The position numbers and the translations under genes are program-made. Shown here one piece after another: positions 2,128-12,858 of a stretch of 12,987 bases of DNA. The notes under the pieces were generated by a model. That model was not told where the DNA came from. It did no database searches and saw only the letters and a program-made list of their open reading frames with translations. The stretch is from assembly GCA_016203215.1 (NCBI GenBank), contig JACQNF010000085.1:1-12987 (forward strand). Direction: 5' to 3'. Each line of letters opens with the position of its first letter. Within the stretch, counting starts at the first letter, position 1. Origin of the DNA: Candidatus Woesearchaeota archaeon (GTDB lineage Archaea; Nanobdellota; Nanobdellia; Woesearchaeales; GW2011-AR9).

Positions 2128-2159
2128 TCTGTATTTAGTTCGCCATCACGGCCGGCGGT
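2128..2159 (-). promoter_or_regulatory. Shared upstream motif, copy A (pfkB promoter)
   Basis: The minus-strand core GCGAACTAAATA (2132-2143) is identical to copies at 3328-3339 and 7092-7103. The flank towards 2159 also matches the inverted copy at 3571-3600: both read CCGCC, then GTGAyGG, then CGAACTAArTAC, differing by a 4-nt insertion and a few substitutions. The copy is therefore either a regulator site or a solitary end of the element at 3323-3597 sitting in the pfkB promoter. Confidence 0.6.
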
Positions 2160-2186: not shown

Positions 2187-3278
2187 CTATGTAGAGAGGT
2201 ATTTTCTCAATCTATTTGAAGGATGGCCAAGTTTCTCCAGTGCGTTTTTTTTGATCTGATTAATCCTCTGTTCTGTCACCCCAAATTTGGGAGCGATCTC
2301 GCGATGTGTTTTTTCGTTTACTACCGTTTCGCAAAGCACTCTCGTTTCTCTTCGAGTCAGCCTTTCCAATGCTTTCTGAAGGTTATCTCTCATTTCACGT
2401 CTTTCGACGTATTCTTCTGCCGTCACGGCGTCTTCGTTAGGACAATATCCTTCTTCAAAAGTTTCAGGCGAAAGAGGATCGCTGTTTGATTCTTTGTCGT
2501 CAGGATTGCCCCAGAGATCGATATATTCTCCATTCAGCGAACAGAGAAGCATTGCGGCGCGTTCATATCCCCATCGAGAATTGAGTGAAGACCTGTATGC
2601 TCGTTCAGCCATGGCATTAAGGAATTCATTGTCAAAATGAGTGCGGAAAAGCGTCCGCGCTTCCCAGTGCAGCTTTAGATACGGGAAAAGACCTTGCTTT
2701 CCTGAAAATCTTAACATTTGTCCGATAGCAGTAGTTCTTATCCAAGAGCTGATTCGACATTTTTCTGGTTGAAATGCATGAAACGATGAAACGATTCTTT
2801 CCATTCCTTCTTGAATCAGATCTTTTTGTTCGCAGCGAGAACCAAGAAGTGTCACTCTTCTCCCCTTTTTAATTTCAATGTACCCTGTTTTGGCTTCCAG
2901 AGCAAGAAGATGGAGATAGGGCATCGTCCTCGTGACGATTTCGCTGACAATCTCCTGTTGGCGAGGAGTGCGGTTCTGCGGAGTTGTCCCTTTTTCCTCG
3001 GCACACATAATTTGGTAATACTCCGCTCCAAGAGCATGAAGATAATCCCAACCCTTTTTGAGAGTATTTTCCGAATTCGGAAGCGATGTCTTTATTTTCT
3101 CCTCCAGCAAGATGGAGGATGGTGTTTCTTCTACTCTCTCTTCATTTCGGTTTGGGCGAAGATATCCTTCGATAACTTGATGTCGTTGATACTGGAAATC
3201 TTCCAAGTCCCATCCTCTCCGTTGATATCGAGGGCGCAACCTGTCAAGTATATGAAGTGCTTGGTCTACGGAACTCAT
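2187..3278 (-). CDS. Sigma-70-like transcription initiation factor
   Basis: A 363-residue protein with two blocks matching bacterial sigma-70. The region 2 block (about 114-191) contains DLIQEGMERIVSSFHAFQPE (153-172), matching the core-binding 2.2 helix, followed by SSWIRTTAIGQMLR (177-190), matching 2.3/2.4. The region 4 block (about 282-363) contains NEDAVTAEEYVERREMRDNL, then LERLTRRETRVL (304-315), the HTH EIAPKFGVTEQRINQIKKNA (327-346), and the primary-sigma-type ending LEKLGHPSN..LRKYL. No region 1.1 is seen, and residues 1-110 and 195-280 are unassigned. No SD precedes the ATG, but a TATA-like box lies 21-32 nt upstream, so the mRNA is probably leaderless and uses the archaeal machinery. 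Sigma-like genes have been reported from some DPANN genomes. Function here is unknown: alternative initiation factor, antagonist or DNA-binding regulator. The neighbouring foldback element may mean the gene was acquired. Confidence 0.85.
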   Translation of the reverse strand: MSSVDQALHILDRLRPRYQRRGWDLEDFQYQRHQVIEGYLRPNRNEERVEETPSSILLEEKIKTSLPNSENTLKKGWDYLHALGAEYYQIMCAEEKGTTPQNRTPRQQEIVSEIVTRTMPYLHLLALEAKTGYIEIKKGRRVTLLGSRCEQKDLIQEGMERIVSSFHAFQPEKCRISSWIRTTAIGQMLRFSGKQGLFPYLKLHWEARTLFRTHFDNEFLNAMAERAYRSSLNSRWGYERAAMLLCSLNGEYIDLWGNPDDKESNSDPLSPETFEEGYCPNEDAVTAEEYVERREMRDNLQKALERLTRRETRVLCETVVNEKTHREIAPKFGVTEQRINQIKKNALEKLGHPSNRLRKYLST

Positions 3279-3298: not shown

Positions 3299-3310
3299 AC
3301 TTTTTAAATG
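3299..3310 (-). promoter_or_regulatory. TATA-like box of the sigma-like gene
   Basis: Minus-strand CATTTAAAAAGT, centred about 26-27 nt before the ATG at 3278, as expected for an archaeal leaderless transcript. The shared motif at 3328-3339 starts 18 nt further upstream, the same spacing as at the pfkB promoter. Confidence 0.6.
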
Positions 3311-3322
3311 TTTTGACTAAGA

Positions 3323-3597
3323 GTACATATTTAGTTCGCCGCAACGATTCGACGGGCGGGCCGTCTGTCTCGCGGAGAATAGCGTTGTCCTAATGGATGT
3401 ATAGGAAACCAACTAAATCATTTGGTGTTAACGGTTGGTTTCCTTATTAGAAATCCAACACATTGACAGAATTACTTTGTTGGATTTCTATACCTAAACT
3501 GTTCTACCGTCTATTCTCCGACATTAACCACTCTGCTTCGCTTAGTAGATCGAGACAGACACTTTGGCCTTGCCCGCCGTGACGGCGAACTAAGTAC
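3323..3597. repeat. 275-nt foldback element with nested hairpins
   Basis: Fills the gene-free stretch between the sigma-like gene and the glycerate-kinase-like gene. Outer inverted repeats are 3331-3341 (TTAGTTCGCCG) with 3583-3593, plus GGCGGG 3355-3360 with 3573-3578. A 20-nt strand 3363-3382 pairs in two halves: 3363-3372 with 3551-3560, and 3373-3382 with 3511-3520. This leaves a 30-nt bulge at 3521-3550. Inside are two long perfect hairpins: AGGAAACCAAC 3403-3413 with 3434-3444 (11 bp), and 3448-3460 with 3478-3490 (13 bp). No ORF is present. The overall T or Y shape suggests a non-autonomous foldback (MITE-like) element; a structured RNA or recombination site is an alternative. RNase P and SRP RNA signatures were not found. 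Confidence 0.75.
3328..3339 (-). promoter_or_regulatory. Shared upstream motif, copy B (sigma-like gene promoter)
   Basis: Minus-strand GCGAACTAAATA followed by TGTAC. Its proximal edge is exactly 50 nt from the ATG, the same distance as copy D before the 199-aa gene. It is also one end of the 3323-3597 inverted repeat. Confidence 0.6.
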
Positions 3598-7091: not shown

Positions 7092-7103
7092 TATTTAGTT
7101 CGC
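7092..7103 (-). promoter_or_regulatory. Shared upstream motif, copy D
   Basis: Minus-strand GCGAACTAAATA followed by CGTAC. It is identical in core to copies A and B and at the same 50-nt distance from the start codon as copy B. The flanking bases beyond the GCG do not resemble the foldback element ends, which favours a protein-binding site over a simple element remnant here. Confidence 0.6.
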
Positions 7104-7126
7104 TACAGAGCCTCGGCAGTCACAAC

Positions 7127-11627: not shown

Positions 11628-11638
11628 AATATAAAACT
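11628..11638 (-). promoter_or_regulatory. TATA-like box of the malic enzyme gene
   Basis: Minus-strand GTTTTATATTA, centred about 33 nt before the ATG at 11599, predicting a leader of only about 6-7 nt. It overlaps the stop codon of the upstream gene. Confidence 0.45.
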
Positions 11639-12858
11639 TACTCTACCATCAGTGTTCCTTTCATCCCGCGCCACTCTTCGCAGCTGCTGCAGACATATTC
11701 AAATGAACCTGTTTCTGGAACAGAAACTTTTACTTTCGTCGGTCCACGAACCTCTTGTTGGACACCCAGCTGAGGTATTGCAAAGGTAAATTCGACATTG
11801 TCAGGTACAATGTTGAAGATGACTGATGATCCTCGTTTGACGGAGACTGCGGGAGGATTAAATAACCAGCGTTTTGCCGCAAGGCGTACTTCTACGGTCT
11901 GTGTCGCTTCTGGCTGTGTCACGGGTGCCGTCGTCGGTTGTTCCGTTACGGTCTCTTTTTTCTCTTCGGGTATTGTTTCTGTTGGCTTGACGGCATCTGT
12001 CGGTGCCGCATTTTGCGGCGTGTTTGAGAGCGAGCCTAAATTCAAGTTCGTATCCAACCCCTGAGGAAAAAATAACTTCCCGTCTTTCGTGAGATAGGAA
12101 TCAACAGTCTGGCCTGCTACCGAAAGAGTGAATTGATACAGCCCTTCCAATTCTGCTGATTTTACCACTTGCGCAACGTACGGCGGAGAGAGAAGGTTCT
12201 CGTTGACAAATGCAAGGGTTTTTGTTTCTGCTTCTTTCAGCGTCAGAGGCGCTGATGACAACGCTTTTTCTGGGAACTGGAATCCCTGCGTGAAGACTGA
12301 AAACAAGAGAAGAATAATCGTTATTCCTGTCAGTGCTTTCCATGTTGAAGCATCTTTGAAAAGTCCGCGATCATCCGCACTTTTTAATTCTACCTTGGGC
12401 TTTGTTTCTTTCTTCTCATCTGCCCACGGATCAACACGCGGGGACGCTTCTACGTATTTTGCAACTTTTTCTGTTTTCGGCTCCATCTTTAGCTCAGGTA
12501 CAGCTTTCTCTACGGCTTTCTTTTCTTCTTTTGGTGCTGATGTTTTCACTGGAGTGATCACGACGTCTTCCGTTTTTTCTTTCTTGACATCCAATTTAAC
12601 TGATGCCTTTGGCTCAACCTTTGCCGTCGCAGTTTTGACCGCTTTCGCTTCTTTCACTTTCTTTGCCGTCACTTGCGGCTTTATTTTTTCTTCTTTTTTT
12701 GAACTCGTCACGGCAGAAGCGAAAGGATTATCCTTACTTTTCAAGGATGCTTCTTTGGCATCTAATTCATCAAGAAAATCTTCGCTGACTACTTCTTCCT
12801 CTAAATATTCTTCTGCAAAAAAAGATTCATCCATCTCGTCTAATTGTTTTTGTTCCAT
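11638..12858 (-). CDS. Membrane-anchored surface protein with degenerate cupredoxin domain
   Basis: A 406-residue single-pass membrane protein. Order: an acidic start (1-35), a Lys/Glu/Val/Ala-rich low-complexity segment (36-160, presumably cytoplasmic), one membrane helix (about 173-190), a small domain (199-270) containing [18 protein letters not shown] and [14 protein letters not shown], a Pro/Thr-rich linker (281-322) and a cupredoxin-like beta domain (323-406). The small domain resembles the stretch preceding thioredoxin domains in some archaeal Dsb-like proteins (recollection, unconfirmed). The last domain resembles the CuA domain of cytochrome oxidase subunit II ([15 protein letters not shown], then [12 protein letters not shown]). 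The His that normally precedes the SF/TF pair is Phe357, the second His is absent, and the cysteines (390, 393) are CxxC rather than CxxxC, so normal CuA binding is unlikely. The mRNA has a predicted 72-nt leader. Confidence 0.75.

What the first reader, a model, noticed from the sequence alone, without database searches (positions are those of the whole stretch)
2187..3278. Bacterial-type sigma-70-like factor in an archaeal genome
The protein keeps a region 2 core (DLIQEG...F.PE...SSWIRTTAI) and a full region 4 ending with the primary-sigma signature (LEKLGHPSN..LRKYL), although the surrounding genes and promoters are archaeal. Archaea normally initiate with TBP/TFB. Sigma-like genes have been noted in a few DPANN genomes but have no known role. 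The gene itself has an archaeal leaderless promoter, suggesting it is expressed by the host machinery.
Basis: partly seen in the sequence, partly recalled or inferred. Interest (0 to 1): 0.8.

Follow-up and report, generated by a model that had tools for sequence, protein, structure and literature searches.

The report
Degenerate sigma-like factor in an archaeon
A tiny uncultured archaeon carries a reshaped relative of the bacterial sigma factor that kept the parts facing RNA polymerase but lost many of the residues that open and read bacterial promoters, so it is more likely a borrowed regulator of archaeal transcription than a working bacterial sigma factor.

Summary
Confirmed: ORF 2187-3278(-), 363 aa, holds sigma-70 regions 2 and 4 (31.8 and 40.8 bits, both over cut-off). 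Contig and RNA polymerase are archaeal (order of Woesearchaeota). Sigma genes in such archaea are already in print (PMC8204110); region 2 is found in 40 of 49 family genomes, and TBP and TFB in 25 of 25 near-complete ones. New: the window protein is not a canonical sigma. It belongs to a divergent clade ("group B", 11 loci in 9 genomes) with an insert between regions 2.1 and 2.2 and no tryptophan dyad (0 of 11; 12 of 19 canonical archaeal sigmas). The window copy also lost three of four -35 base-contact residues, but keeps the RNAP-facing DLIQEG helix and region 4 tail. The polymerase shows no adaptation to sigma in the parts examined: flap length is the same in 30 of 30 Rpo2. Best reading: a bacterial sigma turned accessory RNAP-clamp factor, not an alternative holoenzyme (0.4). 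Its own promoter is a leaderless TATA promoter with an upstream repeat end that lies at fixed spacing before TATA at 29 of 48 genomic ends, an unexpected side finding.

The parts
2187..3278 (-). sigma-70-like gene, 363 aa, group B
2694..2966 (-). region 2 domain with insert (residues 105-195); pLDDT block means 89-97 outside the insert up to residue 190
2829..2885 (-). insert between 2.1 and 2.2 (about residues 132-150), modelled as two short strands 133-137 and 140-143 at low confidence (block means 53 and 65); a longer stretch here is shared by 11 of 11 group B and not by 19 of 19 group A examined
2805..2822 (-). DLIQEG (residues 153-158), the RNAP clamp-facing helix of region 2.2 (role recalled)
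   Evidence: sequence
2706..2756 (-). region 2.3-2.4 equivalent (RISSWIRTTAIGQMLRF, residues 175-191): tryptophan dyad replaced by T-T, Q437 by G
2226..2420 (-). region 4 helix-turn-helix domain (residues 287-351)
2196..2240 (-). C-terminal primary-sigma-like tail LEKLGHPSNRLRKYL (residues 347-361)
   Evidence: sequence
3303..3308 (-). TATA box TTTAAA of the gene, leaderless spacing
3328..3340 (-). promoter-proximal end of the repeat element (GGCGAACTAAATA), 19 nt before the TATA box
3328..3596 (.). full-length repeat element (269 nt, long inverted repeat) just upstream of the gene

Best explanation
The gene encodes a bacterial-derived sigma-70 family protein that has been remodelled inside Woesearchaeota-type archaea into an accessory transcription factor. 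Shown: sigma 2 and sigma 4 domains, kept DLIQEG helix and region 4 tail, loss of the melting dyad and of most -35 contacts, an insert, an archaeal promoter, and an archaeal polymerase. Inferred: its region 2 docks on the clamp coiled coil of the archaeal RNAP, the same homologous site that TFB, TFE and Spt4/5 use (PMC3223566), while its region 4 helix-turn-helix touches DNA with changed or relaxed specificity. It would then modulate initiation or the initiation-to-elongation handover at TBP/TFB promoters, rather than replacing TBP/TFB or opening -10 elements itself.
For: Sigma profiles and fold. Group B is one side of a branch with 11 rows (SH-aLRT 98.6, quick tree). Census against E. coli RpoD residues, similar residues counted (residue roles recalled): region 2.2 RNAP face A 120/133, B 55/77, window 6/7; -10 and melting A 170/228, B 67/132 (identities 135 against 27), window 6/12; -35 base contacts A 67/76, B 29/44, window 1/4; region 4 tail A 97/133, B 51/77, window 6/7 (A and B, window). 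Both tryptophans: A 12/19, B 0/11. TBP and TFB each in 43 of 49 family genomes and 25 of 25 near-complete ones, so the basal system is intact in the family. Clamp coiled coil as shared site of sigma70, TFB, TFE, Spt4/5 and NusG: PMC3223566, Discussion passage.
Against: No binding data. The host clamp lacks the bacterial sigma-contact residues (E. coli R275, E295, A302 align to I, L, H; pairwise alignment; roles recalled) and Rpo2 has no longer flap in 30 of 30 (81 residues against 104 in E. coli), so neither bacterial docking site is there in its known form. For group B as a whole the RNAP face is looser than in group A (55/77 against 120/133), and Q406 and E407 are similar in 4 of 8 each, window included. 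The gene is patchy: 0 region 2 matches in the two same-genus genomes. Neighbours are not shared across group B at large: of eight places compared, only two (G032:C28 and G014:C126) share any neighbours within group B, a translin, a metallophosphoesterase and a small protein.
Confidence: 0.4

Rival explanations
1. It is a free-standing helix-turn-helix DNA-binding regulator that no longer touches RNA polymerase; region 2 is only a scaffold.
For: Region 4 gives the strongest Pfam match; it also scores near the cut-off of the KorA/TrfB repressor family (25.7 against 26.7); the polymerase lacks bacterial docking residues.
Against: DLIQEG and the region 4 tail are kept in the window copy (6/7 and 6/7), which a pure DNA binder would not need.
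Confidence: 0.22
2. It is an active alternative sigma factor that forms a hybrid holoenzyme with archaeal RNAP and recognises its own class of promoters.
For: Sigma 2 and 4 folds; canonical RpoD-like sigmas in the same archaeal family keep most DNA-contact residues and in two genera sit just upstream of the rps13-rps4-rps11-rpo3 operon.
Against: No tryptophan dyad, three of four -35 contacts changed in the window copy; no excess of -35/-10 patterns in the window (13 found, shuffle mean 15.1, sd 4.4); no longer flap in Rpo2.
Confidence: 0.15
3. It is a decaying relic of a laterally acquired sigma gene, with no present function.
For: Long branches in group B; one member is split over two frames (L211); absent from both same-genus genomes; no other copy found with the single sequence in 5.8 billion proteins.
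Against: Intact 363-aa frame with confident sigma domains, a TATA promoter, and a shared insert across 11 loci in 9 genomes with a majority N-terminal motif, which drift would not keep.
Confidence: 0.15
4. The contig is bacterial and was mis-binned.
For: The bin holds one contig, C24, with a second sigma gene and bacterial-looking promoters.
Against: For the window: non-discriminating AspRS, tetranucleotide correlation 0.955 to 61 kb of other contigs of the bin against 0.757 for C24, and repeat ends shared genome-wide with TATA promoters.
Confidence: 0.03
5. The archaeon exports sigma factors to act on the RNA polymerase of a bacterial partner.
For: Canonical group A copies keep most RNAP- and DNA-contact residues although the one Rpo1N examined lacks the bacterial partner residues.
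Against: No export signal or partner was examined; the G035 copy lies inside the RpoD clade near Myxococcota and Oligoflexia sequences, so recent transfer can explain its conservation.
Confidence: 0.02

Closest known systems
sigma-70 family proteins reported in Woesearchaeota and other DPANN (PMC8204110, fam00359)
   Same: Sigma-70 gene in a DPANN archaeon beside the archaeal basal factors; no anti-sigma found there (passage).
Canonical RpoD-like sigma factors in the same archaeal family (group A here)
   Same: Regions 2 and 4; DLIQEG-like helix; region 4 tail.
   Different: Two long group A members scanned have regions 1.2 and 3 (the precomputed domains of the G035 copy show 2, 3 and 4); tryptophan dyad in 12 of 19 and -35 contacts 67/76; group B has an insert and 0 of 11 dyads.
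Bacterial primary sigma (RpoD/SigA)
   Different: 38.5 bits against a cut-off of 354 for RpoD_Cterm.
Archaeal TFE and Spt4/5
   Same: Proposed common docking site, the Rpo1 clamp coiled coil (PMC3223566, passage).
   Different: No homology claimed; the likeness is of proposed action only.

Membership tests
sigma-70 family (broad) | Region 2 profile over curated cut-off | tested here: met
   PF04542 31.8 against 24 bits, partial: profile 16-67 of 71
sigma-70 family (broad) | Region 4 profile over curated cut-off | tested here: met
   PF04545 40.8 against 24.1 bits; TIGR02937 75.0 against 42.9
sigma-70 family (broad) | Binds core RNAP and directs initiation | not testable with these tools
   needs biochemistry
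primary sigma (group 1, RpoD/SigA) | Regions 1.2 and 3 present | tested here: not met
   no PF00140 or PF04539 among the six families listed at E<=1
primary sigma (group 1, RpoD/SigA) | Tryptophan dyad and -35 base-contact residues (roles recalled) | tested here: not met
   W433T, W434T, R584E, E585Q, R588N; Q589 kept
primary sigma (group 1, RpoD/SigA) | RpoD model cut-off | tested here: not met
   TIGR02393 38.5 against 354 bits
FliA/WhiG sigma | TIGR02479 cut-off | tested here: not met
   48.2 against 189.6 bits
ECF sigma (group 4) | Two-domain sigma of about 200 aa (recalled) matching an ECF subfamily model | tested here: inconclusive
   two sigma domains only, but 363 aa with insert and helical N-terminus; no specific ECF model over cut-off among the 25 of 56 rows shown
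KorA/TrfB repressor | PF16509 cut-off | tested here: not met
   25.7 against 26.7 bits, over the region 4 HTH only
group B (this report) | Insert between 2.1 and 2.2, no WW dyad, one clade | tested here: met
   stretch of 34-59 residues against 19-27 in group A; 0 of 11 WW; SH-aLRT 98.6 in a quick tree, unresolved in an earlier careful tree with eight of the rows
fam00359 of PMC8204110 | Family assignment | not testable with these tools

The most novel reading that the evidence does not exclude
Group B is a class of archaeal transcription factor that I did not find described: a bacterial sigma factor stripped of promoter opening and refitted with a new insert, which rides the archaeal RNA polymerase clamp beside TBP/TFB and competes with TFE or Spt4/5. 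That would be a bacterial initiation factor domesticated as a part of an archaeal initiation machine.
Probability: 0.28. Interest if true: 0.82.

Novelty: new variant of a known kind. Interest (0 to 1): 0.5.

Why it matters
Bacterial and archaeal initiation are textbook opposites, and recent papers still state that archaea have or need no sigma factor (passages in PMC12316311 and PMC12993045), yet most genomes of this DPANN family carry sigma-70 genes with no known role. A copy that keeps one face and loses much of the other gives a concrete, testable hint of what such proteins do with an archaeal polymerase, and shows that sigma annotations in archaea cover at least two different things: canonical sigmas, at least one of them close to bacterial RpoD, and a remodelled archaeal clade.

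Tried and rejected
Viral or plasmid origin: tblastn of the protein against phages and plasmids gave no match; viral-contig scans with the window protein (59), two other group B proteins (62, 64) and one group A protein (63) gave no relative. These scans find close relatives only. The sigma gene as cargo of the flanking repeats: it lies between a repeat end at 2132 and an element at 3328-3596, but single ends are common in this genome and each of the two ends in question lies ahead of a TATA promoter, so no composite element is claimed.

The repeat end as the sigma protein's own necessary target: rejected, because both same-genus genomes have the motif family but no region 2 match. Sigma promoters in the window: 13 patterns against a shuffle mean of 15.1. 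TFB and TBP missing from the own genome, and Rpo2 too: assembly gaps are the likely cause (83% complete, 650 kb against 1.0 and 1.2 Mb in the two same-genus genomes), since 25 of 25 near-complete relatives have TFB and TBP.

A common neighbour for group B: eight places were compared (window, L098-L104). Within group B only G032:C28 and G014:C126 share neighbours (translin, metallophosphoesterase, a 75-79 aa protein). Four group B places share housekeeping neighbours with group A places of other genomes: G024:C17 with G063:C56 (ZPR1, OapB, OapC, a GTPase), G032:C7 with G021:C13 (among them a CDP-alcohol phosphatidyltransferase), G032:C57 with G017:C3 (one family not identified) and the window with G014:C39 (glutamate dehydrogenase); the sigma genes lie at different spots there, so I read this as gene order of the archaeal family, not as sigma partners. 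The name of the genome: the genome-contig scan gave one Bacilli match only, own records being left out; the order is named through P0002, identical to the L005 frame of G050, as Candidatus Woesearchaeota, and a same-family copy, P0025 of G035, as Nanoarchaeota.

Literature: of the ten searches, three returned nothing. I read passages, not whole texts, of PMC8204110, PMC7289017, PMC3223566, PMC12316311, PMC5413776 and PMC12993045; the rest were seen as listings. Only PMC8204110 was seen to treat sigma genes in DPANN. A 2013 Nature paper on microbial dark matter that, as I recall, reported sigma factors in archaea is not held and was not seen.

Full report

The setting is archaeal. The window's AspRS passes the non-discriminating models, the bin's Rpo1N is archaeal, and the window's tetranucleotide profile fits 61 kb of other contigs of the bin (0.955). 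The genome is 650 kb in 93 contigs, 83% complete. A protein of the same order is named Candidatus Woesearchaeota (P0002, identical to the L005 frame of G050) and one of the same family Nanoarchaeota (P0025 of G035).

Sigma genes are common there. Region 2 hits 40 of 49 genomes of the family, 22 of 25 near-complete ones, and 101 of 279 sampled in the phylum. TFB and TBP are each found in 43 of 49, and in 25 of 25 near-complete ones, so sigma comes in addition to the archaeal system. In two genera a canonical sigma gene lies just upstream of rps13-rps4-rps11-rpo3-L18e-L13-S9-rpo10 (families by Pfam in G035, by BLAST links in G034), which argues strongly against mis-binning for those. PMC8204110 already reports sigma-70 as particularly prevalent in Woesearchaeota, without anti-sigma factors found (passages read); [quoted passage not shown]

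The window protein is of another make. An alignment with E. coli RpoD, RpoH, FliA and RpoE and 18 archaeal copies shows two sets. Group A looks like RpoD. Group B (window; G022, G024, three in G032, G050, G014, G063, G293, G263: 11 loci in 9 genomes) has an N-terminal majority motif around GWEKLNELGxEYH (8 rows), a longer stretch between regions 2.1 and 2.2 (34-59 residues against 19-27 in 19 group A and 19 in E. coli), and no tryptophan dyad (0 of 11 against 12 of 19). In a quick tree of 51 rows the 11 form one side of a branch (SH-aLRT 98.6); an earlier careful tree with eight of them left this open. Against 5.8 billion proteins the single sequence found only itself, and the group B profile of eight rows found 24 proteins: the window's, P0002, and 22 others with sigma Pfam domains that were not sorted one by one. 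In 371 genomes of the phylum the profile matched 106 at E<=1e-6; of the fetched loci tested, four scored better with it than with a general sigma profile (G022, G063, G293, G263). Matches not fetched were not classified, so 11 is a lower bound.

Function by residues. The residue roles are recalled, the counts computed (A and B, window). RNAP-facing region 2.2: group A 120 of 133 similar, group B 55 of 77, window 6 of 7. Reading and melting of the -10 element: 170 of 228, 67 of 132, window 6 of 12. Base contacts at -35: 67 of 76, 29 of 44, window 1 of 4. Region 4 tail: 97 of 133, 51 of 77, window 6 of 7. So the window copy keeps the polymerase faces better than the DNA faces. For group B as a whole the RNAP face is also looser than in group A, which weakens the argument for the clade.

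The polymerase side speaks against simple use of bacterial docking. In 30 of 30 Rpo2 sequences fetched (of 35 genomes with a match among 40 searched; own genome none), the flap stretch has the same 81 residues (104 in E. coli), with or without sigma genes (four of the 30 genomes, G007, G009, G020 and G070, had no region 2 match). G035, which has two canonical sigmas, has an Rpo2 that aligns without gaps over 370 residues to chain 36ro_B, an archaeal Rpo2 (organism recalled as Pyrococcus). In the own Rpo1N, E. coli R275, E295 and A302 align to I, L and H (pairwise alignment). On the other hand the clamp coiled coil is the shared site of TFB, TFE, sigma70, Spt4/5 and NusG (PMC3223566, Discussion passage), so docking there by changed residues is plausible.

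Best reading: an accessory factor on the archaeal RNAP clamp (0.4). Rivals: a free helix-turn-helix regulator (0.22), a hybrid holoenzyme (0.15), a relic (0.15).

The promoter of the gene led to a side finding. GGCGAACTAAATA occurs 27 times exactly in the bin and the reversed control 0 times; with one mismatch 48 against 0. It forms both ends of a dispersed element, 177-179 nt in eight full copies and longer in three, an imperfect long inverted repeat; the copy at 3328-3596 is 269 nt and folds with z -10.3 as RNA. Of 48 distinct ends, 29 have a TATA-like hexamer starting 17-22 nt downstream (300 shuffles: mean 1.7, largest 5) and 29 an ATG at 47-53 nt (5 at 37-43, 1 at 27-33). In the same genus 11 of 12 matches in G001 read GGCAAACTAAATA and 7 of 9 in G002 GGCCAACTAAATA (only sites within one mismatch could be seen), mostly followed by CGTAC, with other element bodies. 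A TATA-like hexamer lies at the same distance in 4 of 12 ends in G001 (shuffle mean 0.5, but the largest shuffle value was also 4) and 6 of 11 in G002 (mean 0.4, largest 2). Either a mobile element aims at a fixed distance upstream of TBP/TFB promoters, or the end is an upstream activating site that species have changed in concert. The sigma gene is one of the genes with this promoter; both same-genus genomes lack a sigma region 2 match, so the element does not depend on it.

A caution on counting. The bin's second region 2 hit lies on contig C24, which has bacterial-type promoter patterns (27 against a shuffle mean of 15.8, sd 4.7, one perfect extended -10 site), no repeat end in the exact or one-mismatch search, and an outlying tetranucleotide profile (0.757; window stretches of the same length 0.948-0.954). 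It is probably a bacterial contaminant, so some sigma hits in such bins may be too, and the tallies are upper-end figures for that reason.

Noticed in passing
window 3328-3596, 2132-2144(-), 7092-7104(-), and 48 ends in the bin: Dispersed element of about 178 nt whose outward end GGCGAACTAAATAC sits 17-22 nt upstream of a TATA-like hexamer in 29 of 48 ends (shuffle mean 1.7) and 47-53 nt upstream of an ATG in 29 of 48. Same-genus species carry variants at the fourth base (11 of 12 and 7 of 9 matches) with other element bodies.
   Followed up: partly
G000:C24 (locus L105): Probable bacterial contaminant contig in the bin, with a second sigma region 2 gene and a perfect TTGACA-17-TATAAT site. 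The other reading, sigma-type promoters in an archaeon, is not fully excluded.
   Followed up: partly
L109:4696-9348(-) (G014:C39): 1550-aa open frame with three sigma region 2 matches and matches to regions 1.2, 3 and 4.
   Followed up: no
L106, L107 (G061:C56, G062:C28): Tandem arrays of three sigma genes next to members of one protein family; the L107 member has a DUF7343 domain.
   Followed up: no
L108, L117 (G035, G034): Canonical sigma gene directly upstream of the archaeal rps13-rps4-rps11-rpo3 operon in two genera; the G035 copy shows 55-68% identity to the other proteins listed, those with an organism named being bacterial, over 61-82% of its length (120 of 7999 scored rows listed).
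   Followed up: partly
G059, 10 matches: The 8 distinct G059 sites shown belong to another repeat (GGCGAACTATATA in most) without a TATA box at that spacing, so the likeness is probably chance.
   Followed up: yes
window 11638-12858(-): Protein with a C-terminal stretch weakly like halocyanin (E 0.014, below the cut-off).
   Followed up: no
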